From Tomocerus qinae (lineage: Eukaryota; Arthropoda; Collembola; Entomobryomorpha; Tomoceridae), in NCBI GenBank assembly GCA_020055645.1, contig CM034547.1, positions 36,462,909 through 36,526,908 on the forward strand: a stretch of 64,000 nt of DNA, read 5' to 3'. A program made the position numbers and the translations under genes. Positions 1-23,285 of the stretch are shown here, piece by piece (the first letter of the stretch is position 1; each line of letters opens with the position of its first letter). The notes beneath the pieces were generated by a model. The model was not told the DNA's origin. It worked only from the letters and a program-made list of their open reading frames with translations, and made no database searches.

Positions 1-3000
1 ACATATCGTGAATAAATGTACTCATGGTTCCGTCTGATATTGAATTAGCCCCTGTGTTTGGATCTGAGCCGAATGTTGTCCAGTTTAGATCACTGGATAC
101 ATCAAATCCTTCATTTATTTGAGAACGGCTGCCTTCACTTGATGCAGGAGTGATGGTAGAGTATGAATGCACTCGCTTAGATCCAATTACTACGAAATTC
201 AAAAACTAATTATGTTTCAGAACTAAGTGATACTAATATAGTTTAGTGAAAAATGTCAAAAGACAAACTTACACTGGTACAAAAATTGGTGAATATCTCT
301 CACTATTGCTTGAGGCTGTTTTCTAGAATCGGGAACTTTAGACCAACATTCCGATATAACGCGATGTACTTCTAGAGGACATTTTGTTGGACGAGGTAGT
401 CGCCACCCAGTCGAATATTTCTGCAGAGTTTTCAATACGTATATTACAATTATAATTTTCTTACTTTTATGACGTTTGATTTAAAAAATTTAACATTTGC
501 CTACCGATTTGTAGGTAGCATGGGGTAGGTCGTTTGGAGGTTTTTCTCCGTACGAAAAAACTTCCCATAAAGTTGTCCCAACTGCCCATATATCAGCACT
601 GACAAAACTTTTGGCTAAAGATGGTATTTCAAAAAATTCTGGTGGTATCCAATGAACACTGAAAACAAACATTTTTTTACCAAAAACTGGCTAGCTTAAA
701 CTAAATTCATAAATTCAAATGGTCTTACTCATCTGCTGAATAGGTAATTATACTAGGATCAGAAAGTTTGACTATGAATGCGCTTTCACTGTGTTCGTAA
801 ACCATGACATTATGGCACCGTATATTTCCATGTACGATTCCATGGTCTTCCTGCAATCATGACATATACGTCATTACATGTTACTGTGTGCTCTTAAGAG
901 CATTAGCATTTTATTTAACTATTTTTACTATTGAGTTATTTTTTTTCGATTAGTTAAATTCAACAATAAAACTATAACTTACAAGAAACCATATAGCTTT
1001 TGCAATATGACTAGCAGCTTCAATCAGTTCAACAACTTCGACGTGAAGAGAATTTTCTTTCAAATAAATGTCCAGTGGACCAAGAGGCATCCAATCTAAT
1101 ATCAGCGCTTGAGGGTTACCAAGTACAATTCCGCGCAATGCTACTAATGAGTCGCACTGCCATAGTACACATCGGTCTGCCATTTCTAATAGCTCCTATT
1201 ATCACAAAAATATATTTCTCTTTTAGACTCTTTTGCAATATATGGAATTACGATAAGGTATGCCGTAAAGTATTATAGGCCAACCTTCATCATTTTCTCC
1301 TCATTTTCTTTTTTCAAAAATTTGATAGCCACATCCACATTGCTGGTCTTGTTTTGTTTCCAAATAGCCTTGAATATTTTGCAAGTTTTTCCTTCGTATT
1401 CAAACCGTTTTCCTCTGTAAATTTGTAAAGATCGTGCTGAAATACATTGAGGCGCAATTGATGATAGTTCTTGCACTTCTGCACTTTTAGCAGAAAACTT
1501 TTCCGAACGGTTATTTTGTTTACGGCACAACAATAAAGGAGTTCGATCTATACAAAGCAAATGAATAAATACAAGTCACTGTCTCTATTATGTACTACGC
1601 TAACTATAAGTATCATCAAACTATTTCATACATCACGAATTTAATATATTTCTATTAATACTAGACAAAAAATTTGACTAACCGTATTCAGACGGAGGTA
1701 GGCATTCCTTCAATACAAAATCAGTTTCTGGATTTGCAATGAAATGTGAAATTAACTCTAAAACAGAGCTAAATTCTTGTGAATATTTTTCAAGTACATA
1801 TTTTCCTTCTGCGGTGCAATTAATTTCTTTAGTCATTGGGCGACTTCTACAAAAACAAATTTAAAAAGTTAATTTTTTAGTTGATTTAATCCATATTAAC
1901 CTTAAAAGGGTAATTACTGATCTTAATATAATTCTCATAATTAATATCATACTTGTTTTGTAAAATGTAGTCAATGCTGTAGGAATTAAATACAACCGAA
2001 CTTTGTCGTAATATGAAAGAACCAGTAGCAGTTGTCGGATGTTTGGAAAGCTTTTCATACGAAAATTTTTCTCTGAGTTAGAATCAAAATAAATCATCTT
2101 AAGCAAACCATTTTTATATCACCATATTCATAAAATAAGTAGCAAATTAATACGATCCAAAAATTGTAAAATAGAGTATTAAACTTACCCAACAGGTCCA
2201 TGGCATTTAAAAAATTTAAGCAGGCCTAATGAAGGGGTGGGTAGATCTTTGCACAAATTAAACGTCCATTTTTCACATAAACGGTAGTAGCCGTCCAGTA
2301 CGGATACATAAGATTGTACTTGATCAATAGATTTGAACTTAAAGCATATTGGAATTCCATTTTTTCTTGAAATCTCAGCCGTACAGTCTCCCCTCATAGA
2401 AATGAAGCACAAATCTTCTACAGAGCAAATGTGTTCCCACTACAAAAAAAAATACTTAGCTGAACCCATACAAGTTTGTAGTTTATTGGTTAAATTCTAC
2501 ATTATTTGATATCATAAAACTCAAATGTTACATTTTGTTTTCCAATGTAGGCGATAGAAACCCCTGGTTGATCAGGATGAAATGGGTCCACTCGAATTGT
2601 AGCCGGGTATTCTTCTTCCTTATAGGTCATAGCGTGGTATTCCTCCACCAAATATCTGGGAGCTAATTCTTCTACTTGACTGATATACTGCTCTTTTATA
2701 TATTTAGCACTAGCAACGTTGTGATGACGGTCTATTTGAAGTAATTTTGTCAATTGTTCATGAATTCGTTTTTTAAGGAAAAACATATGCTGCTTGTAAA
2801 TGCATTTGGGGATAAACTGGCGGTAGTTCGTTTCAACGTATTCTCTCGCTAGTCCGTCTTCAATGATCGTTCTAAACATATCCGTCACACATAATCCGAG
2901 GGCTTCACATTTCGTTTGATCTTGGATCACTTCCGGAATGTCTCCATGCAACAAATCGTGTCGAATTTGATGAAATAAGTAATCAAAAGAATTTTCATCC

Positions 3001-3275
3001 ACTCGACTTAAATGAGGGAGAGATGGTACTTTGAATCGAAGCCGGAACTCTACTTGGTAGAACTGAGTTCCATCAAATTTGAAACAAGGGGCTAGCCAAA
3101 TCCCTGAAGACTTTCCTATTCTGAGTGAAAACAGATGAAGAGCTACTGGTCGTAATTGAAGATGTTTGGCAACGATTTTGCACACATCTTCGGCTGTCAA
3201 TTTGTCAGTAATAGGAACGTCGAAATTCTTGCCTCCTTTGTTATACAGATACACTACTATTCCGTTAGAGTCCAT
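1..3275 (-). CDS. hop: Janus kinase (JAK, hopscotch family), 5' two-thirds of the gene
   Basis: Cytoplasmic tyrosine kinase that couples cytokine receptors to STAT. Nine exons are visible on the minus strand: 3275-2532, 2439-2189, 1846-1683, 1547-1285, 1195-983, 850-729, 658-505, 420-273 and 189-1 (continuing off the window). All junctions keep frame, giving about 749 residues. Exon 1 encodes an N-terminal FERM domain (residues 1 to about 300). Exons 2-3 match the SH2-like region. Exons 4-8 form the JH2 pseudokinase: VAIKF with the beta-3 lysine at K462, GPLDIYL, HGNIR in place of HRD (552-556), SDPS in place of DFG (575-578), WIPPEF and DIWAVGTTLWEVFSYG. Exon 9 starts the linker to the active JH1 kinase, which is not in the window. 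An in-frame stop at 2502 lies in intron 1 if the GTAACA donor at 2531 is used; that donor and GTTGGC at 1284 are the weakest. Family assignment is firm; the symbol is by orthology. Confidence 0.93.
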
Positions 3276-3529
3276 TGGTCACACTGTTAAAGAAAAAATT
3301 GGTTTTGATCATCATTTATCAATAAAATATGTCACTTGATCATCGAGGAGATTATCTTTGTACAAATGTATACTATTATAGCCGTTACTGACTGTAAGAC
3401 GCACAACCAACCGGTTCAAGAACTGACGAAGTTAATATTTTCTGTTATCTATTTCAGATTGGATAGAAGCAAATGCAACTGCAAAAACAACTGCCGGAAG
3501 AAACGCAAACGGAACATTGGTTTCGAAAG
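3276..3529. promoter_or_regulatory. Head-to-head interval between JAK and the C1orf43 homologue
   Basis: Only 254 bp separate the two start codons. On the minus strand a pyrimidine-rich acceptor (TTTCTTTAACAG) ends at 3284, eight bases before the JAK ATG. On the plus strand another (TCTGTTATCTATTTCAG) ends at 3457, upstream of the C1orf43-type start. If both are used, 3285-3456 is intronic for both genes. Each 5' untranslated exon would then lie inside or beyond its neighbour, so this is not a simple bidirectional promoter. The acceptors are seen; their use is inferred. Confidence 0.5.
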
Positions 3530-6274
3530 ATGGCTCAACAACTTTCTGGCGGTACGTTGGTTATCATCATCGCTGGAGGAGTCCTAACCTTTCTTTTATT
3601 ATTCATCTTCGCAAAAAGACAAATTATGAGATTCACCTTGAGATCTCATCGGGGACCTCATGCGCCTTTAGGTGCTGATGCTAATAAGGTGAGATACTGT
3701 GCTACTACTTATAACATAACTAACACCCGAACAGCGAACATAAACCATGGAATATCTGATCTAATGCTGATACATTATGATATACATAGGCTAGCTTGAT
3801 CCAAGACTCTTGGAATATTTAAACTCTGACTCTTACTTTTCATCACATTTGACAAAATCTAAAGATTTTATACTCATGAATGACTCATGTCCGAGACCGA
3901 CTGGCTACTGTATGTATAGATTTTTGGTTTTGGTATCATATACCTACAGACGCGGCAGTGTTATAAGCAAGGCATGAAAAACAATTCGGACTATAATATC
4001 ACTTGTGTGTTGTGTCACTAGACTTTAGACACGTACTTTAGATGAAGGCAGTCTAAGCTTACTAAAGTCCAGATTGTACACATTATATACTGAATTGTTC
4101 ATGATTTCCCCTTTTCTTCGCCCTTTGAATAGTTTGAATATTAAAAGACTACGACTAGTATTTTATTGTAATTGTAATACCTGCATTGCATATAAACAAT
4201 AAGTACGGATAAGCAAGCAAATAAAATGATAAAGATAAAATAAGATAAGATAAAATGTTTTGGGGGAAACGCTGTCAAGTGTGTCAAGTAAAAAATTGGG
4301 TTTTTAACACCTTTATCTTGTGGTACTAGGCTGGGGAAAAAGTATTCTAATTTATGGTCAGGGTCAGGGTAATTTTGCCTTTTAGTGAGGTAATATTGGC
4401 TCACATAGTAAATAAAAACCAAAAAAAATTTTTTGTGCTTTTGAGACAAACTACTTGATTTAGTCTTTCATGCTCACACTTAGCTCAAAACAATCCGCTA
4501 AATAATACGCTTAATGTCACAGTGTCAAGTTTACTCATTTGCTGAAACTGTATCTAACTTGTATTTTGTATGCATAAAAATTCCGTATTTGTATTTACAA
4601 CATATTTCGCGAACACCCTGTAGATATAATATGATAATTTGATTAGAGATCCAAAAATGGTCAAAACATTTAAACAATAAATATCGGTTGGATTGGACCA
4701 AACGGGCCGCAGGTAAATATCAAGAAGTGTACATGTCCACTTGTTGCCAAAAATATATTATATTATGTAAATCGAAATAGCAGATGTAAGCAAAATAAAA
4801 TTGTTCCTCTCTAGCCCGACTCGAGTGGGGCTTGCCTTGTTCGAAGTTAAAAGTAAATATCAAGTATACAATATACAATTCAATTACTTGATCTTGATAC
4901 GTGTTTTGATGTTGGATTCTCCAAACGAATCAAAATGCAAAAACATTCAGGCATTTGAATTTTAAATATCGTTTCCTGCTAAAACGTGATAATTTTCTTG
5001 GATTCGCTACAATTTTAAGCAGAATTGAAACGATGTGGTATGTTTAATATTGAGTTGGTCAATATAAAATAAATATTAAAGCTTATTTTATTTTGTTATG
5101 TTAACAAAATGTTCAATTCAGCATCATTTTGGCATCATTTTGGTTTATAGCGTTTTAACTAAGCACCCAACAAGTTGCAGACGCGCTTCTCTGAAAAATC
5201 TGTGATAGTTATTCAAAACTGTTGAATAAAACATGAAAAGATTCGAATCTTCAAGATAAGCTGCTCAAAAACACATTTGGATTCATTGTTTTATTGCACC
5301 AAATCCCTCGATGATGTCTATTTGCTGTGTCATCCTCCTATATTTTTCTTCTGATTCTAATCTTTTACTGCATTGGACGACTGGACCATTTAACGAATAC
5401 ATTATCAAAATTAATTCTAATTTTCAATTTTATGTATCTAGTCTTTGCGGAGGGAAATTCTACGTCGCATTGATGCCTTGCAAAAAATAACATACGAGCC
5501 ACAAATTTTGCGAGATGACGTCGCTGGCAAATACTCAAAAGAAGGAACTGTAAAGCCATGTCATTACTACAGAATGAAGGCCGTTGATGATGCTAAAACT
5601 TTAGGTGATATTTTATCTCATACATACACACCTGTCTGTATTATAACTGTACATTTTCGACTTTGGTTTGCAGAATGAAAAAACAAAACTAAAAAAATTG
5701 TACACTCTTTTTCAGAAATGAGCATAGTAAAGAAGAAATTAGGGAAGAGACATTCTTTCGAAAGTCTTCGCTCTTATTTCATTTTAATTCTGACACCTCA
5801 AGTTGATCCAAGAGTAGTGCATCAGTTTTGCGACCTTTATGAGGCTTCTCGATATAACCCAAAGCCTTTTAATGAAGAGGAATATAAAGCGTTTTGCTTG
5901 CTTTTACGACAACTTCGTAGCGCGTAAGCAATTTAATATTTCGTTGTTTTTGGTTTTTGCTTAATGTATATCTTTAGTAGAATAAGAATTATAAATAATA
6001 TATTTGCCTACACAGGGTGGTCACTTTACAACCTAAGTGCAGCGTCCGCAGCCCTGCGAAATCTGCCAAAGCACCTCCGCCTCAAATGCCATCAGCAGTA
6101 ATATTACAAAATGAGGAGAAAACTGGTTCACTTGCCGCACCTTACATTCGTCGACTGACGAAGAAAGACAAAAGCAAATGGAATCCTAACGATGAGGAAC
6201 AAGCTCTATGTCACTCCAACACGTTGCATGAAATTTCAGTCATTTCCGATAAGGACGAATCGACGGTTGTATGA
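3530..6274 (+). CDS. C1orf43 (NICE-3) homologue, single-pass membrane protein
   Basis: Four exons: 3530-3688, 5442-5604, 5716-5923 and 6016-6274 (TGA), in consistent phase, encoding 262 residues; human C1orf43 is 253. A hydrophobic segment at residues 9-28 is followed by FIFAKRQIMRF and RGPHAPLG, which closely match the human juxtamembrane sequence. Exon 2 carries LRREILRRIDALQKITYEPQ, also conserved. Exon 3 has LRSYFILIL and YEASRYNPKPFNEEEY. The basic, proline-containing tail in exon 4 is less conserved. I prefer the ATG at 3530 because its context is stronger and it aligns with the human start; an in-frame ATG at 3473 would add 19 residues. In vertebrates the protein has been linked to phagocytosis and endomembranes; its insect role is unknown to me. 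An AATAAA lies near 6355. Confidence 0.9.
3689..5441 (+). other. Intron 1 of the C1orf43 homologue (1.75 kb)
   Basis: GTGAGA donor and TATCTAG acceptor bound an AT-rich intron. It contains short A-rich low-complexity sequence (about 4195-4255). I see no second gene, RNA gene or complete transposon in it. Confidence 0.75.
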
Positions 6275-14043: not shown

Positions 14044-14210
14044 CAAAAGCTCCCGTACTAGAAAAGCTCCCATTTAGACAATCTCCCTATTAGAAAAGCT
14101 TCCCGTTAGACAAGCTCCCTATTAGAAAAGCTCCCCGTTAGACCAGCTTCCGGTATGAGAAATAAGGAGAAACGGCAGAACGAAAATCGAAACTATAAAA
14201 CTTAGTAACT
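14044..14210. repeat. Left terminal inverted repeat with 32-bp subunits
   Basis: Built from alternating units of about 18 bp (AAAAGCTCCCCGTTAGAC) and 14 bp (AATCTCCCTATTAG), repeated about three times. A unique inner part follows (GAAATAAGGAGAAACGGCAG onward). It pairs with 23151-23285 in inverse orientation but has one more 32-bp unit than that arm. Confidence 0.85.
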
Positions 14211-15045
14211 TGAGACGTAGAGGTGGATCGGATATCTTTGAAGTTAAAGCGAACTAGTATTATACTACTCTAATATAGTATAATTACATTACATTACAAT
14301 TACATTTTAATTGAAATAATTTTATTTCATGCGATGCAACCAATTTAAAGTAATTGTAATACAGTAGCATTTAAGGAGGGGTGGGGACTTTCAGCGTATA
14401 TTACTCAGAGCAATGGACTAAACGTACAGGCATGCGGTTTTCTATTTCAGAATTTACAAAGATTTTTAAGACGAGCATGAAAGCCCAATTTTCAAAAATC
14501 ATTTTTTAAGTCATCGAAAATTCAATTTGAAAATTTTGATTTTGAGTGGGGAAATACATGTAAGAAATATATTTTGAATTTTTGTTCACATTTGCAGACA
14601 CAAATTCAAAAAAAGGTGCCTCATGCTCTCCCTCATTTTTTCCCCTCTTTTTTATGGCATTTTTGTTATATTTTTACGTTTTTCCAAAATCTTGAAATCA
14701 TTTTTTAAAGATTTTACATGCAAAATTTTGCCTAAGAACTGCGACAAAAATTGCGGGAGGACAGCACGGAGTATTCATAAATAATGGTGGAAATACAACC
14801 AACAAACACAATTGTACAATTGTTGATTGTGCATTCCTTTAGAATTACGAAATGTTATTTCTGACAGTTTCCTATCAGTTTTAATTTTTTAATCATTTAA
14901 CCCTAAAATTCTTGACCTCGCCCCTCATCAAACTCTACATCTGAAAAGGATAAATTGAGGTGGTAAGTATAAGAGAACTAATTCGAGGTGACATATTAAT
15001 TATATAAATTACTAGCAGCATCAAATTTTGCAATTATATTTTCAT

Positions 15046-15590
15046 GTTTCAGCAGTAACTATCACCGTGGTCAACCAGATTTAGAAGCCAGACTCGACTA
15101 GGAGTCCAAACCTTCGAAAATATCATTCTGTTTGATCTTGAAATCCTCGTCAGCTGATACGGGTAAAAAATTGCGAATTAAGATTAATTTCTTATTGCAA
15201 ATTAGTAGTTTCGAAATCATCATTTTTATAAACTACATCTTGGAGTATTATAACTAGTTCATTTGTATTTCAACAGTAATTGTCACCGACTGTGTTTAGT
15301 TGCATGAATTGACTGGGAATCCAATAAGATCATTGTTTGCAATCCTCAAAACGTCGTAGAGCATACATAGCAATTCGGGTAAACAGAATAGTTTATTATT
15401 GCATATTACTAGATACGATATTCCTATTTTTAAAACGTGAAGCATGAATAGTGTAACTCATTATTCATATTTCAGCAGTGTCACCGTGGTCAACTAGAGT
15501 AAGAAGCCAGACTCGACAAGACATCAACGTATAGATCAAAATATACAATCCTCATTTAATTGGCAATATTATTGTATACAAGACAGTCAG
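15046..15590 (+). repeat. Three degenerate internal repeats in transposon copy 1
   Basis: Units begin near 15046, 15268 and 15470. Each opens with TTTCAgCAGT and TCACCG, followed in two units by AAGCCAGACTCGAC and, more loosely, by a copy of AATCCTC and an ATTGCAnATTA(C/G)TAG block. The period is about 200-220 bp. They do not encode a shared open frame. They may be decayed exons or binding-site arrays. Confidence 0.6.
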
Positions 15591-15602
15591 ACAAGAAGTA
15601 TT

Positions 15603-16583
15603 GTGATACTCGTACAAACGTTTGAGTGGGATACCCAAACGGCTACACCCCGGTAGACGATTTTTTTGCACGATGGGTGGAAAATGCGGACATAGACCAA
15701 TCAAGACTAGAATTAAAAACTTTAAGCCAAAAAAGCTTATTCCTGTTGTGCTAGAAAATCAAAGCAAAAAAAGAGAACGAAATTTGGGACATTAATGGAA
15801 GAAGAATGGTTTCAGTCGAATCATTACAAATACTAATCCAAGAAACACAAAAGAATGTGAAATTTTGCCTCAAAAGTGATTAAAATTTTTTAAAAGAGAC
15901 ATGGATTGGACTGCGTCGCAGATTTCACATTGCATGTGGCCACTGCGGTCGGCAGTTTACAGTCTTGATGGACTCTCAAAACAATTCCTTACCAATCAAT
16001 ACTGCCGCAGTTTGGGGAACAATGGAATCTGGTGGGGGCTATGATTCTCTTTTCGATTTACTAAAAATAATGGATATCCCTCCAATTAATTTTAAATTAT
16101 ACAAATCAAATGAATATAAAATACATGAATACCAAGAACTATCTTTGATTCAAAATTTAAAAGAAAATGGCAAGGAAGAACTACGATTAGCCCTAGAAGA
16201 TGAAAAAACTTTACTATGATGGTATTCCATGTATAGCAATAAGTTGTGACGGTAGTTAGGGAAAGCTATCGTACGGAGACTCATACAAATCTCTTTCTGG
16301 TTGTGCGGTTATCATCGGAGTACGAACTGGTAAACTGTTGCACATCGACATTCGAAATAAATGCTGCTACACTTGTTTAGTTCATCCTGATTCTCCGCAC
16401 AAATGTTTTAAAAACTATAACGGAACAAGCACTTCAATAGAAACAGATGTAATTGTCGAAGGATTTCTCAAAAGTGAAGAAATGCATGGGATGTATTACT
16501 CACAAATGATAGCTGACCAAGATTCGAGTGTTTTTGTTAATGTACAAGAATCCATGAAAACTAAATTTGGATTAAATGAATGA
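15603..16583 (+). pseudogene. Degraded Mutator/Kolobok-like transposase, copy 1
   Basis: Two clear open pieces (15965-16219 and 16338-16583) follow a shattered N-terminal part (15603-15880). The first contains INTAAVWGTMESGGGYDSL; the second contains HKCFKNYNGTSTSIETD and DSSVFVNVQ. These match the conserved blocks of the Mutator-like transposase domain common in insect genomes. Before the second piece a DGS codon run is followed by TAG where copy 2 has TGG. One-base indels separate other pieces. The protein ends at FGLNE, short of the usual C-terminal part of the domain, so it is both frame-broken and truncated. Confidence 0.75.
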
Positions 16584-17215
16584 CTGAATGACAATTTAAT
16601 TAATGGAAAAATTATATGGTAAATTGCAATAATGTGTAATGTTATTTGGATGTAGAAATGAATGCAATTACTTTATAGACTATATAATTTTTTGAGTGTA
16701 GGATAGAAATTCAAAAATTTTACAGCTCACGAGTGGGATTTGTAATGGTAATTACCCCGGAGTGACAATTTAATTGATTCAAAATTTATAATTACTACAT
16801 TTTTACATTATTTCAAAGTGCATGATAATAATATGTAATGTTATTGGGTAGCAATCCTAATATGGTGTAAATAATCAATTCATTTTAATTATAATATAAT
16901 GTTTTATTGTTTAATCATGTGTCATCCAATAGCCAATGTTATCATAAAAATACTTACTCCCACTCGTCATCATTTACATTACTTTGAGTCGCTGATCCCC
17001 CAAAGTCCCACTTATCATCATCAAAAAGTTTTGAATTTGCATTACCAAAAATACCCTAATGCTCTAGCAGATGAGAACGATATTTTTTCGGCTTTGCATA
17101 CCCACAGGTACATTTTTCCCATTTTAGATGTTCCTTTTTCTTTTTCATCGGCAGATCGCTCTTCGTCAAATTCAGGACAGCGAAAACTTTGTAGACTTGG
17201 GTGGATTTTCAAAAA

Positions 17216-18370
17216 TCATTTCATCCGATGATAGCACAGCATAGTCAGTCGGGCATCAATAATTTCCGAATGATGACCATTTATGTTTTGCCGGTCGACC
17301 CCAAAAAAATGCTTGCTTAAATACGACATTCCAACTTTCTGTTTTTTCATATCAACGTAAAAATCTTGAATGTCGATTAGTTGACTAGCTTCAACGGTGT
17401 TAGCATTCAAATCCAATGACTCCAAATATTTTTGTATTTCAGTTGCAACGACCACTTTTCCTTTTAGACACGACTTTATATAAGGCAATGTCTGTTAAAA
17501 TTAATTTGTATTTAATTTCGTGGAAATTTCATGAGTGAGTAGTAGCATAAAATAAGTAATTGTAATCCCAGTAGATCATTAAATAAAAAAGATAATCACA
17601 AACCTCCTCTAATGTTTTTCCATTAGCTACCATTTCCTTGGTTATCCCTGTTAGGTTAGTAAAATATTTGCATATTTTCGGATAATTTATAATTGCCCAC
17701 AGTAAAAGTTTGCCTTTTTCATTGACCACGGCAATTGATGACGCTGCTTGCTTATGACTTCCCTGGAGTTCTAATTTCTCTACGTCAAAAGAAACCTCCT
17801 TAGCTTCAGCGATCAAATTACCTCTGTAAATAAACGGCACCTATTTCCAATTATAATAGTGTAATTAAAATCTTGCCAACTCATTAAATATTTTTAAACA
17901 TCCTCAATTAAACTGACTTACGGTAGGGAAATGAGGTAAGCCACAATTTAAAATTTTGGGGCCAGGAACTGGTGCTGCACCGAGGTCAATCGGGTTGGAG
18001 GGCCTACTCACAGACGTCTCCTGACCCTCATTAGGAGGCATAGCAACTTTTGGCTTCTTGTTAATCTCCACGATAAGATTTTTAGCAGAGTTCATTTGGA
18101 TGCGGCTGCACGGACTACGCTTGACAATTTCAGAAGTCAGGCAGTGGTAAGCATCTGGTGTCAAATGTTTTGACATTTCCAAAATGTCTTCCTGTTAATT
18201 TAAAATAATAAGTATACTATTCTTACTGAATTAACTTTAAGTGATGATTGATGCCTAAAAGTAATAAATGACTCGGAGAGAAATGAAGTACTTACCACCT
18301 CTTTTGGAATATAATATATTGCCTTTTTTGTGGAGGCAAAGATGCACATGTTTTGTGACTCATTGTTGTA
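17216..18370 (-). CDS. DEDDh-type 3'-5' exonuclease carried by transposon copy 1
   Basis: Four exons on the minus strand: 18370-18296, 18191-17922, 17840-17604 and 17491-17216 (stop). All are phase 0, encoding at least 285 residues. The protein is identical in sequence to that of copy 2; one codon near the C-terminus differs silently (CAT versus CAC). Exonuclease motif I is FDVEKLE (D134, E136), and motif III is HSEIIDAR (H268, D273). It resembles RNase T/REXO4-like exonucleases, including the LTGIT and DFYVD blocks. At the usual motif II aspartate position (KVVVATEIQKYLESL) I read tyrosine Y216. The start is uncertain: the first exon seen begins with YNNES after a TTTGCAG acceptor, and the next exon upstream is non-coding or decayed. 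An alternative start is the methionine in QNMCIF. Confidence 0.65.
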
Positions 18371-18680
18371 CTGCAAATTAAATGGTATATTAGGTACAGT
18401 ATCGCAATATTTTTAAGATATAAAAAACGTTATCTGATACAAGTCGTTAGTACGGTAGTAATGTACTTACCCAGATATTTATGATTCAGGTCAGATTATC
18501 ACCAAACAAAATTGAAGTGAGGACAGTTTTTGGCTTGTTTGAAAAGTAAACTAATAATAAGCAATACCCTCATTGCGTTTGTTTACGATATTGAGCTAAT
18601 AATATTGTATCGCAATTTATGCACACCTCGCAAAGTGTCACAGTATTTATCCTTCTTGCTCTGAAAGTTACCACCCCTCC

Positions 18681-18684
18681 TTAA
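18681..18684. other. TTAA shared by the two inner transposon copies
   Basis: A single TTAA separates the right end of copy 1 from the left end of copy 2, forming the perfect palindrome CCCCTCCTTAAGGAGGGG. It fits insertion of one copy into the target duplication of the other, or a tandem duplication. Confidence 0.9.
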
Positions 18685-19352
18685 GGAGGGGTGGGGACTT
18701 TCAGCGTATATTACTCAGAGCAATGGACTAAACGTACAGGCATGCGGTTTTCTATTTCAGAATTTACAAAAGATTTTTAAGACGAGCATGAAAGCCCAAT
18801 TTTCAAAAATCATTTTTTAAGTCATCGAAAATTCAATTTGAAAATTTTGATTTTGAGTGGGGAAATACATGTAAGAAATATATTTTGAATTTTTGTTCAC
18901 ATTTGCAGACACAAATTCAAAAAAAGGTGCCTCATGCTCTCCCTCATTTTTTCCCCTCTTTTTTATGGCATTTTTGTTATATTTTTACGTTTTTCCAAAA
19001 TCTTGAAATCATTTTTTAAAGATTTTACATGCAAAATTTTGCCTAAGAACTGCGACAAAAATTGCGGGAGGACAGCACGGAGTATTCATAAATAATGGTG
19101 GAAATACAACCAACAAACACAATTGTACAATTGTTGATTGTGCATTCCTTTAAATTACGAAATGTTATTTCTGACAGTTTCCTATCAGTTTTAATTTTTT
19201 AATCATTTAACCCTAAAATTCTTGACCTCGCCCCTCATCAAACTCTACATCTGAAAAGGATAAATTGAGGTGGTAAGTATAAGAGAACTAATTCGAGGTG
19301 ACATATTAATTATATAAATTACTAGCAGCATCAAATTTTGCAATTATATTTT

Positions 19353-19895
19353 CATGTTTCAGCAGTAACTATCACCGTGGTCAACCAGATTTAGAAGCCA
19401 GACTCGACTAGGAGTCCAAACCTTCGAAAATATCATTCTGTTTGATCTTGAAATCCTCGTCAGCTGATACGGGTAAAAAATTGCGAATTAAGATTAATTT
19501 CTTATTGCAAATTAGTAGTTTCGAAATCATCATTTTTATAAACTACATCTTGGAGTATTATAACTAGTTTTTTTGTATTTCAACAGTAATTGTCACCGAC
19601 TGTGTTTAGTTGCATGAATTGACTGGGAATCCAATAAGATCATTGTTTGCAATCCTCAAAACGTCGTAGAGCATACATAGCAATTCGGGTAAACAGAATA
19701 GTTTATTATTGCATATTACTAGATACGATATTCCTATTTTTAAAACGTGAAGCATGAATAGTGTAACTCATTATTCATATTTCAGCAGTGTCACCGTGGT
19801 CAACTAGAGTAAGAAGCCAGACTCGACAAGACATCAACGTATAGATCAAAATATACAATCCTCATTTAATTGGCAATATTATTGTATACAAGACA
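19353..19895 (+). repeat. Three degenerate internal repeats in transposon copy 2
   Basis: Same array as in copy 1, with units starting near 19353, 19575 and 19777. The elements sharing TTTCAgCAGT..TCACCG recur with a period of about 200-220 bp. Confidence 0.6.
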
Positions 19896-19912
19896 GTCAG
19901 ACAAGAAGTATT

Positions 19913-20890
19913 GTGATACTCGTACAAACGTTTGAGTGGGATACCCAAACGGCTACACCCGGTAGACGATTTTTTGCACGATGGGTGAAAAATGCGGACA
20001 TAGAACCAATCAAGACTAGAATTAAAAACTTTAAGCCAAAAAAGCTTATTCCTGTTGTGCTAGAAAATCAAAGCAAAAAAGAGAACGAAATTTGGGACAT
20101 TAATGGAAGAAGAATGGTTTCAGTCGAATCATTACAAATACTAATCCAAGAAACACAAAAGAATGTGAAATTTTGCCTCAAAAGTGATTAAAATTTTTTA
20201 AAAGAGACATGGATTGGACTGCGTCGCAGATTTCACATTGCATGTGGCCACTGCGGTCGGCAGTTTACAGTCTTGATGGACTCTCAAAACAATTCCTTAC
20301 CAATCAATACTGCCGCAGTTTGGGGAACAATGGAATCTGGTGGGGGCTATGATTCTCTTTTCGATTTACTAAAAATAATGGATATCCCTCCAATTAATTT
20401 TAAATTATACAAATCAAATGAATATAAAATACATGAATACCAAGAACTATCTTTGATTCAAAATTTAAAAGAAAATGGCAAGGAAGAACTACGATTAGCC
20501 CTAGAAGATGAAAAAACTTTACTATGATGGTATTCCATGTATAGCAATAAGTTGTGACGGTAGTTGGGAAAGCTATCGTACGGAGACTCATACAAATCTC
20601 TTTCTGGTTGTGCGGTTATCATCGGAGTACGAACTGGTAAACTGTTGCACATCGACATTCGAAATAAATGCTGCTACACTTGTTTAGTTCATCCTGATTC
20701 TCCGCACAAATGTTTTAAAAACTATAACGGAACAAGCACTTCAATAGAAACAGATGTAATTGTCGAAGGATTTCTCAAAAGTGAAGAAATGCATGGGATG
20801 TATTACTCACAAATGATAGCTGACCAAGATTCGAGTGTTTTTGTTAATGTACAAGAATCCATGAAAACTAAATTTGGATTAAATGAATGA
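19913..20890 (+). pseudogene. Degraded Mutator/Kolobok-like transposase, copy 2
   Basis: Three open pieces in order. 19913-20191 contains NGRRMVSVESLQILIQETQK, the usual N-terminal block. The second runs from after the stop at 20189-20191 to 20527 and includes a CGHCG zinc-binding-like motif plus AAVWGTMESGGGYDSL. 20564-20890 contains LSYGDSYKSLSG, HKCFKNYNGTSTSIETD and DSSVF. Frame is lost between pieces by a stop and one-base shifts; at the DGSW motif copy 2 lacks one G of a G run. The C-terminal part of the domain is absent, as in copy 1. This copy cannot make transposase; mobility would have needed a source elsewhere. Confidence 0.75.
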
Positions 20891-21522
20891 CTGAATGACA
20901 ATTTAATTAATGGAAAAATTATATGGTAAATTGCAATAATGTGTAATGTTATTTGGATGTAGAAATGAATGCAATTACTTTATAGACTATATAATTTTTT
21001 GAGTGTAGGATAGAAATTCAAAAATTTTACAGCTCACGAGTGGGATTTGTAATGGTAATTACCCCGGAGTGACAATTTAATTGATTCAAAATTTATAATT
21101 ACTACATTTTTACATTATTTCAAAGTGCATGATAATAATATGTAATGTTATTGGGTAGCAATCCTAATATGGTGTAAATAATCAATTCATTTTAATTATA
21201 ATATAATGTTTTATTGTTTAATCATGTGTCATCCAATAGCCAATGTTATCATAAAAATACTTACTCCCACTCGTCATCATTTACATTACTTTGAGTCGCT
21301 GATCCCCCAAAGTCCCACTTATCATCATCAAAAAGTTTTGAATTTGCATTACCAAAAATACCCTAATGCTCTAGCAGATGAGAACGATATTTTTTCGGCT
21401 TTGCATACCCACAGGTACATTTTTCCCATTTTAGATGTTCCTTTTTCTTTTTCATCGGCAGATCGCTCTTCGTCAAATTCAGGACAGCGAAAACTTTGTA
21501 GACTTGGGTGGATTTTCAAAAA

Positions 21523-22678
21523 TCATTTCATCCGGTGATAGCACAGCATAGTCAGTCGGGCATCAATAATTTCCGAATGATGACCATTTATGTTTTGCCG
21601 GTCGACCCCAAAAAAATGCTTGCTTAAATACGACATTCCAACTTTCTGTTTTTTCATATCAACGTAAAAATCTTGAATGTCGATTAGTTGACTAGCTTCA
21701 ACGGTGTTAGCATTCAAATCCAATGACTCCAAATATTTTTGTATTTCAGTTGCAACGACCACTTTTCCTTTTAGACACGACTTTATATAAGGCAATGTCT
21801 GTTAAAATTAATTTGTATTTAATTTCGTGGAAATTTCATGAGTGAGTAGTAGCATAAAATAAGTAATTGTAATCCCAGTAGATCATTAAATAAAAAAAGA
21901 TAATCACAAACCTCCTCTAATGTTTTTCCATTAGCTACCATTTCCTTGGTTATCCCTGTTAGGTTAGTAAAATATTTGCATATTTTCGGATAATTTATAA
22001 TTGCCCACAGTAAAAGTTTGCCTTTTTCATTGACCACGGCAATTGATGACGCTGCTTGCTTATGACTTCCCTGGAGTTCTAATTTCTCTACGTCAAAAGA
22101 AACCTCCTTAGCTTCAGCGATCAAATTACCTCTGTAAATAAACGGCACCTATTTCCAATTATAATAGTGTAATTAAAATCTTGCCAACTCATTAAATATT
22201 TTTAAACATCCTCAATTAAACTGACTTACGGTAGGGAAATGAGGTAAGCCACAATTTAAAATTTTGGGGCCAGGAACTGGTGCTGCACCGAGGTCAATCG
22301 GGTTGGAGGGCCTACTCACAGACGTCTCCTGACCCTCATTAGGAGGCATAGCAACTTTTGGCTTCTTGTTAATCTCCACGATAAGATTTTTAGCAGAGTT
22401 CATTTGGATGCGGCTGCACGGACTACGCTTGACAATTTCAGAAGTCAGGCAGTGGTAAGCATCTGGTGTCAAATGTTTTGACATTTCCAAAATGTCTTCC
22501 TGTTAATTTAAAATAATAAGTATACTATTCTTACTGAATTAACTTTAAGTGATGATTGATGCCTAAAAGTAATAAATGACTCGGAGAGAAATGAAGTACT
22601 TACCACCTCTTTTGGAATATAATATATTGCCTTTTTTGTGGAGGCAAAGATGCACATGTTTTGTGACTCATTGTTGTA
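21523..22678 (-). CDS. DEDDh-type 3'-5' exonuclease carried by transposon copy 2
   Basis: Exons 22678-22604, 22499-22230, 22148-21912 and 21798-21523 (stop), all phase 0, encoding at least 285 residues. Splice sites are GTAAGT/CAG-like except the weaker GTTTGT donor at 21911. Motif I (D134, E136) and motif III (H268, D273) of the DEDDh fold are present, and motif II has tyrosine where aspartate is expected. The gene faces the transposase remnant tail to tail. Its intron structure argues that a genomic gene, not an mRNA copy, was captured. Function is inferred only: RNA or DNA 3'-end trimming. Whether it is active is doubtful given motif II. Confidence 0.65.
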
Positions 22679-23150
22679 CTGCAAATTAAATGGTATATTA
22701 GGTACAGTATCGCAATATTTTTAAGATATAAAAAACGTTATCTGATACAAGTCGTTAGTACGGTAGTAATGTACTTACCCAGATATTTATGATTCAGGTC
22801 AGATTATCACCAAACAAAATTGAAGTGAGGACAGTTTTTGGCTTGTTTGAAAAGTAAACTAATAATAAGCAATACCCTCATTGCGTTTGTTTACGATATT
22901 GAGCTAATAATATTGTATCGCAATTTATGCACACCTCGCAAAGTGTCACAGTATTTATCCTTCTTGCTCTGAAAGTTACCACCCCTCCTTAACTGTAATA
23001 TGTATTGTTACTATTATCTTACTACTTGTTCCAGCTATACACAGTCCATGTTTCTTGTCCCAAAAATAAAAGATATTGTGTAATAAAGCGTCAAAGCAGC
23101 CCGTTAAAAGCCAATCAGGAAACTGCGTAATTAAAAATTAAACGGTAAAA

Positions 23151-23285
23151 AGTTACAAAGTTTTATAGTTTCGATTTTCGTTCTGCCGTTTCTCCTTATT
23201 TCTCATACCGGGAGCTGGTCTAACGGGGAGCTTTTCTAATAGGGAGATTGTCTAACGAGGAGCTTTTCTAATAGGGGAGCTTTTA
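23151..23285. repeat. Right terminal inverted repeat of the outer element
   Basis: Reverse complement of the left arm, with two rather than three 32-bp subunits. Contains GGAGCTTTTCTAATAGGGGA-type units at its outer side. Confidence 0.85.

What the first reader, a model, noticed from the sequence alone, without database searches (positions are those of the whole stretch)
14375..22988. Transposon that carries a spliced DEDDh exonuclease gene opposite its transposase
Both copies have a plus-strand Mutator/Kolobok-like transposase remnant and, on the other strand, a four-exon exonuclease-fold gene (about 285 residues). A nuclease passenger is unusual for a cut-and-paste element. It could be a captured host REXO4-like gene, a functional accessory of the element, or a host gene within a composite unit. 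The introns argue against capture through mRNA.
Basis: partly seen in the sequence, partly recalled or inferred. Interest (0 to 1): 0.8.

Follow-up and report, generated by a model that had tools for sequence, protein, structure and literature searches.

The report
Decayed Kolobok transposon carrying exonuclease relic
These are two side-by-side copies of a broken jumping gene whose fuller relatives in the same genome carry a transposase and two different DNA-cutting enzymes; the exonuclease in these copies looks like a decayed leftover rather than a captured host gene.

Summary
Window 14375-18680 and 18685-22988 are two ~4.3-kb TTAA-flanked elements with a broken PF20700 (Kolobok/Mutator-like) transposase on + and a four-exon DEDDh-type exonuclease frame on -. 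The genome search found 33 near-full-length copies at 97-100% identity.

It is most likely neither a captured host gene nor a working passenger. Longer relatives (~6 kb) have three genes: transposase, a YqaJ PD-(D/E)xK nuclease downstream, and the exonuclease convergent on the other strand. Of 44 hand-picked transposase loci, 30 have the exonuclease, each time downstream on the opposite strand. The catalytic residues and one intron position are conserved in five families, 36-58% identical to the full-length relative F44.

The window copies are internal-deletion derivatives. An exact Tyr-codon pattern for the third catalytic Asp hits 51 sites, 0 beside a listed YqaJ; the Asp pattern hits 12, all 12 beside YqaJ. 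dN/dS is 0.7-2.1 among derivatives, 0.16-0.33 against F44.

Kolobok with DEDDh exonuclease is published as KolobokD, with PD-(D/E)xK nuclease as KolobokE (PMC9587614). Both in one element, with an ISG20/REXO4-like exonuclease, is not in the passages I read.

The parts
14375..18680 (+). Element copy 1 (4306 bp), non-autonomous Kolobok derivative
18685..22988 (+). Element copy 2 (4304 bp), head-to-tail with copy 1
14371..14374 (.). TTAA target-site duplication, left
   Evidence: empty site
18681..18684 (.). Single TTAA shared by the two tandem copies
22989..22992 (.). TTAA target-site duplication, right
14375..14392 (+). Terminal inverted repeat GGAGGGGTGGGGACTTTC (copy 1, left end)
22971..22988 (-). 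Terminal inverted repeat (copy 2, right end; GAAAGTTACCACCCCTCC as read on +)
19808..20188 (+). Transposase remnant, N-terminal frame (copy 2); no Pfam transposase domain of its own
20192..20527 (+). Transposase remnant, middle frame, PF20700 7.6e-13 (copy 2)
20564..20890 (+). Transposase remnant, PF20700 2.9e-26; ends at the internal deletion (copy 2)
20882..21002 (.). Approximate junction of the ~1.78-kb internal deletion, with filler and a nearby ~70-nt insertion (transposase C-terminus and YqaJ gene missing)
   Evidence: coordinates worked out by hand from it
22604..22678 (-). Exonuclease exon 1 (copy 2); start frame shifted relative to F44
22230..22499 (-). Exonuclease exon 2 (copy 2)
21912..22148 (-). 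Exonuclease exon 3 (copy 2), holds D and E of DEDDh
21523..21798 (-). Exonuclease exon 4 (copy 2), third Asp replaced by Tyr; H and last Asp kept; stop after HRMK
21264..21522 (-). Remnant of the C-terminal tail, out of reach behind the stop and a frame change (copy 2)
18296..18370 (-). Exonuclease exon 1 (copy 1)
17922..18191 (-). Exonuclease exon 2 (copy 1)
17604..17840 (-). Exonuclease exon 3 (copy 1)
17216..17491 (-). Exonuclease exon 4 (copy 1), third Asp is Tyr
15884..16583 (+). Transposase remnant (copy 1), two frames

Best explanation
The window holds a head-to-tail dimer of a young non-autonomous Kolobok element. Its parent type is a ~6-kb three-gene Kolobok still present in the same genome: a transposase, a downstream YqaJ-type PD-(D/E)xK nuclease on the same strand (probably one spliced protein with it), and, converging from the other end, a spliced ISG20/REXO4-like DEDDh exonuclease. 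The derivative lost the transposase C-terminus and the YqaJ gene by an internal deletion; its exonuclease lost a catalytic Asp and its tail; and it was amplified by transposase supplied in trans. In the full-length element the exonuclease probably trims 3' ends of transposition or repair intermediates, complementing the YqaJ nuclease. Shown: gene layout, deletion, link of the Asp-to-Tyr change with loss of YqaJ, TTAA sites, conserved catalytic residues and one conserved intron position, loss of constraint. Inferred: movement in trans, joining of transposase and YqaJ by splicing, and the biochemical role.
For: 33 near-full-length copies at 97-100%. TTAA at both ends in 8 of 8 loci L001-L008. 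Flanks joined at one TTAA match seven uninterrupted genomic copies at 80-87% and one at 77%. F44 (C2:44604838 on) has transposase, YqaJ (PF09588 1.9e-16) and exonuclease with intact tail; a ~1.78-kb stretch of it is missing from the window element. Of 44 hand-picked transposase loci 42 have YqaJ downstream on the same strand, 30 the exonuclease downstream on the opposite strand, 28 both. D, E, D, H, D are invariant in five exonuclease families. Asp pattern 12 sites, 12 of 12 within 4 kb of a YqaJ hit; Tyr pattern 51 sites, 0 of 51. dN/dS on exons 3-4 is 0.16-0.33 between F44 and five derivatives, 0.69-2.13 among them (7 of 10 pairs defined). Exons 2-4 are full-length and gap-free in 14 of 30 copies, 16 carry a gap.
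Against: No expression, splicing or biochemical data. Genome searches score only the best candidates and three exonuclease lists are cut off, so counts are lower bounds and absences weak. The Asp and Tyr patterns need exact matches, so diverged copies are not counted, and the 51 Tyr sites were not each checked for the deletion. Few substitutions underlie dN/dS among derivatives; only 5 of the 18 copies prepared were compared; for the tail the contrast is weaker (0.22-0.26 against 0.46-1.18). dS between F44 and F11 is saturated (2.95). F23 (L072) showed no clean TIRs in the 7 kb held. A few element ends lack exact TTAA (L037, L044, L045 and the junction in L040).
Confidence: 0.9

Rival explanations
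1. A recent capture of a host REXO4-like gene, introns included, at DNA level (Pack-type passenger).
For: Introns are present and the exonuclease is ISG20/REXO4-like.
Against: The same gene sits at the same place in families whose transposases are about 34-58% identical, with the same exon 3/4 border in the five families read. The host RNase_T scan gave only a REXO2-like and an ERI1-like locus, but it also missed the element's own exonuclease, so a split host REXO4 gene could be missed too.
Confidence: 0.03
2. The exonuclease in the window copies is a working, selected accessory of the non-autonomous element, for example as a nucleic-acid-binding pseudonuclease.
For: Exons 2-4 are open in 14 of 30 copies, both window copies included. 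Tyr is found in all derivative loci where the position could be read. Inactive DEDDh proteins with a binding role exist (Exuperantia; seen here only as a reference title in PMC12934764). In the tail dN/dS among derivatives falls to 0.46 for some pairs.
Against: dN/dS on exons 3-4 is 0.69-2.13 among derivatives; the tail is cut off by a stop and a frame change; the start frame is shifted; 16 of 30 copies have a gap in exons 2-4; the F14-type sister derivative keeps its truncated transposase frame but has frame changes in the exonuclease.
Confidence: 0.06
3. The exonuclease is a separate host gene or second mobile unit that happens to lie inside a composite unit.
For: It has its own strand and introns.
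Against: It lies between the element ends in F44, F11, F14, F6 and the window family, with a constant convergent layout in 30 of 30 tabulated loci that have it.
Confidence: 0.01

Closest known systems
KolobokD (Kolobok lineage with DEDDh/DnaQ exonuclease; PMC9587614)
   Same: Kolobok transposase, TTAA target, DEDDh exonuclease as accessory gene; reported from mollusks, arthropods and cnidarians.
   Different: There the exonuclease is said to resemble exuperantia, TREX and ERI1; here profiles hit ISG20, ISG20L2, SDN1 and PAN2, and none of those three is among the hits at E up to 10. A YqaJ nuclease in the same element is not mentioned in the sections I read. The window copies are broken.
[quoted passage not shown] PMC9587614)
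   Same: 42 of 44 tabulated transposase loci have YqaJ downstream on the same strand; L073 has only these two genes.
   Different: 28 of the 44 also carry the convergent DEDDh exonuclease.
KolobokP (PMC9587614)
   Same: Kolobok with a nuclease; multimers described.
   Different: His-Me finger nuclease and long terminal direct repeats; the window element has short TIRs, and the proteins scanned gave no such Pfam hit.
Dada transposons with DEDDy exonuclease domain (PMC3706591)
   Same: DNA transposon with a DnaQ-like exonuclease thought to process 3' ends.
   Different: Domain lies inside the transposase, DEDDy type, 6-7 bp TSD.
ISL2EU (PMC4482050)
   Same: Most autonomous candidates carry a second ORF with a YqaJ exonuclease domain.
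   Different: Different transposase superfamily; no DEDDh gene in the passages seen.

Membership tests
Kolobok superfamily | TTAA 4-bp target-site duplication | tested here: met
   8 of 8 loci L001-L008 and the window flanks; empty site. Exact TTAA missing at ends in L037, L044, L045 and the L040 junction.
Kolobok superfamily | Termini 5'-RR and YY-3' (unlike piggyBac) | tested here: met
   GG...CC termini
Kolobok superfamily | DDD/E transposase with C/DxxH motif between second D and last E | tested here: met
   PF20700; CVNH and QAESFM read by eye in F44. Deleted from the window copies.
KolobokD | DEDDh exonuclease encoded by the element | tested here: met
   All residues in five families; the window copies have lost the third Asp
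KolobokD | Exonuclease similar to exuperantia, TREX, ERI1 | tested here: inconclusive
   Best PDB profile hits are ISG20L2, ISG20, SDN1, PAN2; none of the three named appears at E up to 10. ERI1 is in the library; that TREX and exuperantia are is recalled. The published sequences could not be compared.
KolobokD | Place on the published transposase tree | not testable with these tools
   Repbase sequences and the paper's alignment file not held
[quoted passage not shown]
   YqaJ PF09588 in F44, L072, L073 and beside 42 of 44 tabulated loci; deleted from the window copies
KolobokP | His-Me finger nuclease and long terminal direct repeats | tested here: not met
   Short TIRs; no such Pfam hit among the proteins scanned
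Pack-type gene capture | Recent host donor gene | tested here: inconclusive
   No close host gene in the PF00929 scan, but that scan also missed the element's own exonuclease; the gene is shared by distant families, which argues against recent capture.

The most novel reading that the evidence does not exclude
A Kolobok lineage not yet described as such encodes two exonucleases of expected opposite polarity: a YqaJ/lambda-type nuclease attached to the transposase, and a separate convergent ISG20/REXO4-like DEDDh enzyme acquired independently of the TREX/exuperantia-like one of published KolobokD. They act as an end-processing pair in transposition, and derivatives that lose transposase and YqaJ also lose constraint on the exonuclease.
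Probability: 0.4. Interest if true: 0.55.

Novelty: new variant of a known kind. Interest (0 to 1): 0.4.

Why it matters
The same genome holds a family with transposase and YqaJ only, families with all three genes, and amplified derivatives with a natural Asp-to-Tyr change, which makes the role of accessory exonucleases in cut-and-paste transposition directly testable.

Tried and rejected
Recent host capture: rejected because the gene and its strand are shared with distant families and the exon 3/4 border with the four other families read. Working exonuclease in the window: rejected because of Asp-to-Tyr, the shifted start, the lost tail and dN/dS around 1. Host donor gene: the PF00929 scan gave 3 matches at 2 loci, a REXO2/oligoribonuclease and an ERI1 relative, with no useful similarity to the element exonuclease; the scan did not recover the element's own exonuclease, so it cannot exclude a split host gene. 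TIRs of L072: no convincing pair within the 7 kb held. The F23 exon 3 string was not found, so F23 values there rest on exon 4 only. Chance-level PDB hits outside the exonuclease families (a collagenase fragment and a toxin subunit, E 0.02-0.55) appeared and were set aside. The species was not identified; 'eukaryote' is my inference. Exonuclease lists and the transposase list are cut off, so absence at a locus is not proof; only L073 was searched directly by HMM.
Full report
WHAT IS THERE. Two near-identical units, 14375-18680 and 18685-22988, lie head to tail and share one TTAA; TTAA also flanks both outer ends. Their ends are 18-bp imperfect inverted repeats (GGAGGGGTGG...ACTTTC). A genome search with copy 1 gave 37 matches: 33 near-full-length at 97-100% identity (both window copies included), two partial, two end matches. 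In 8 of 8 loci L001-L008 both ends abut TTAA; among the other ends seen, L037, L044 and L045 do not, and the junction in L040 has only TT. The joined flanks of the window dimer, with one TTAA, match seven uninterrupted genomic copies at 80-87% and one at 77%, so the dimer sits inside an older inverted-repeat element (arms 14085-14211 and 23150-23276).

TWO GENES, BOTH BROKEN. On the plus strand PF20700 (Mutator-like transposase) matches in separate frames (7.6e-13 and 2.9e-26). On the minus strand four coding exons give a 278-residue protein with a weak RNase_T hit (4.8e-4, below Pfam's cut-off) and ISG20 as best PDB match (0.001). Profiles from relatives raise this to 2.6e-9 and to 6.3e-14/1.3e-13 for ISG20L2/ISG20, followed by SDN1 and PAN2. 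TREX, ERI1 and exuperantia are not among the hits at E up to 10; ERI1 is in that library, the other two are so by recall.

THE PARENT ELEMENT. Fuller relatives exist in the genome. F44 (C2:44604838 on, ~5994 bp, same ends) has a transposase, a YqaJ nuclease downstream on the same strand (PF09588 1.9e-16) and the exonuclease on the other strand with a complete C-terminal tail. DNA alignment shows that the window element lacks a ~1.78-kb piece (positions 3945-5727 of the F44 stretch), with a few bases of filler and a ~70-nt insertion nearby. The missing piece holds the transposase C-terminus (CxxH motif and last E, read by eye) and the YqaJ gene. F11 (C4, transposase 55% identical) is 6238 bp between TTAA-flanked ends and has the same three genes. 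F23/L072 (49%) also has all three. L073 (51%) has transposase and YqaJ within candidate TIRs 591-5202 but no DEDDh exonuclease by HMM.

HOW GENERAL THE LAYOUT IS. From the genome lists I picked 44 transposase loci by hand, leaving out the deletion derivatives and most fragments among the 160 matches (itself a cut-off list). 42 of 44 have YqaJ downstream on the same strand within 4 kb, 30 of 44 the exonuclease within 7.5 kb, 28 both. In 30 of 30 the exonuclease is downstream on the opposite strand; two of these lie 6.7-6.8 kb away, the rest 2.5-3.7 kb. Of 82 YqaJ loci, 44 have the exonuclease within 6 kb downstream on the other strand and 38 have none listed. The exonuclease lists are cut off, so the positives are lower bounds. 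In one family transposase and YqaJ lie in one 887-residue open frame.

CONSERVATION OF THE EXONUCLEASE. Across five families (the others 36-58% identical to F44) D, E, D, H and D of the DEDDh site are invariant. The exon 3/4 border is at the same place and phase in F44, F11, F23, L075 and L076. F44 has Pfam RNase_T above cut-off; F11 and F23 have no Pfam hit, so the family assignment rests on their similarity to F44 and on the profile searches. Between F44 and F11 dN is 0.33 and dS 2.95 (saturated). The exonuclease is an old, conserved part of the transposon.

DECAY IN THE WINDOW FAMILY. Every derivative locus where the position could be read has Tyr in place of the third Asp (two loci, L036 and L062, gave a second, Ile reading from another aligned piece), while L069, L071 and L072 have Asp. 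Exact pattern searches found Asp at 12 sites, 12 of 12 within 4 kb of a YqaJ hit, and Tyr at 51 sites, 0 of 51; the 51 were not each checked for the deletion. The window copies also have a stop straight after HRMK, a frame change in the tail and a shifted start. Exons 2-4 are full-length, gap-free and open in 14 of 30 distinct copies held; 16 carry a gap, in-frame gaps counted too. dN/dS on exons 3-4 is 0.16-0.33 between F44 and five derivatives, and 0.69-2.13 among those five (3 of 10 pairs undefined, dS zero). The transposase fragment behaves alike (0.23-0.45 against 0.66-1.83, one pair undefined). For the tail the contrast is weaker (0.22-0.26 against 0.46-1.18, one undefined). Five of the 18 copies prepared were compared, and two of them (L055, L065) are close sisters. 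The F14-type sister derivative keeps its truncated transposase frame open but has frame changes in the exonuclease. So neither gene seems needed in cis, and the derivatives look mobilised in trans (inference).

HOST GENE. A PF00929 scan of the genome gave three matches at two loci. PDB searches place them as an oligoribonuclease/REXO2 and an ERI1 relative; neither resembles the element exonuclease usefully. The same scan missed the element's own exonuclease exons, so a host REXO4-like gene split by introns is not excluded.

COMPARISON WITH WHAT IS KNOWN. [quoted passage not shown] A search for the word KolobokD found only this paper. PMC3706591 (passages) describes a DEDDy exonuclease inside Dada transposases; PMC4482050 (passages) a YqaJ ORF in ISL2EU. 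In searches (listings, plus the passages named) I did not find a Kolobok with both nucleases or with an ISG20/REXO4-like exonuclease; Repbase entries and the paper's supplements could not be checked. Hence 'new variant of a known kind', with 'new member' as the fallback.

MECHANISM. Best reading: cut-and-paste at TTAA by the transposase, with the YqaJ nuclease (5'-3' by family, recalled) and the DEDDh exonuclease (3'-5' by family) processing element or donor ends. The internal deletion with filler is what interrupted gap repair could give (inference). The window copies themselves most likely do nothing but be moved.

Noticed in passing
window 14085-14211 and 23150-23276: Inverted-repeat arms (127 nt, 96% complementary) of an older repeat into whose TTAA the Kolobok dimer inserted; seven uninterrupted copies at 80-87% and one at 77% elsewhere in the genome.
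   Followed up: partly
L040/L069 (C2:44604838-44610834 and the next copy): The full-length element also forms a head-to-tail dimer, but its two ends are joined by only two bases (TT on one strand, AA on the other) instead of TTAA; the junctions in the window and in L025 have TTAA. This could point to a joined-end or circular intermediate.
   Followed up: no
C5:20859852, C1:86941032, C1:34696528: Transposase and YqaJ matches fall in one 887-residue open frame, a transposase-nuclease fusion, with no exonuclease listed nearby.
   Followed up: no
L076 (C1:109125350-109126080) and similar loci: Another multi-copy family with a DEDDh exonuclease (all catalytic residues kept, frame broken after the exon 4 core). 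No YqaJ is listed beside this copy, but a related exonuclease locus (C1:70871513) has one at C1:70873076.
   Followed up: partly
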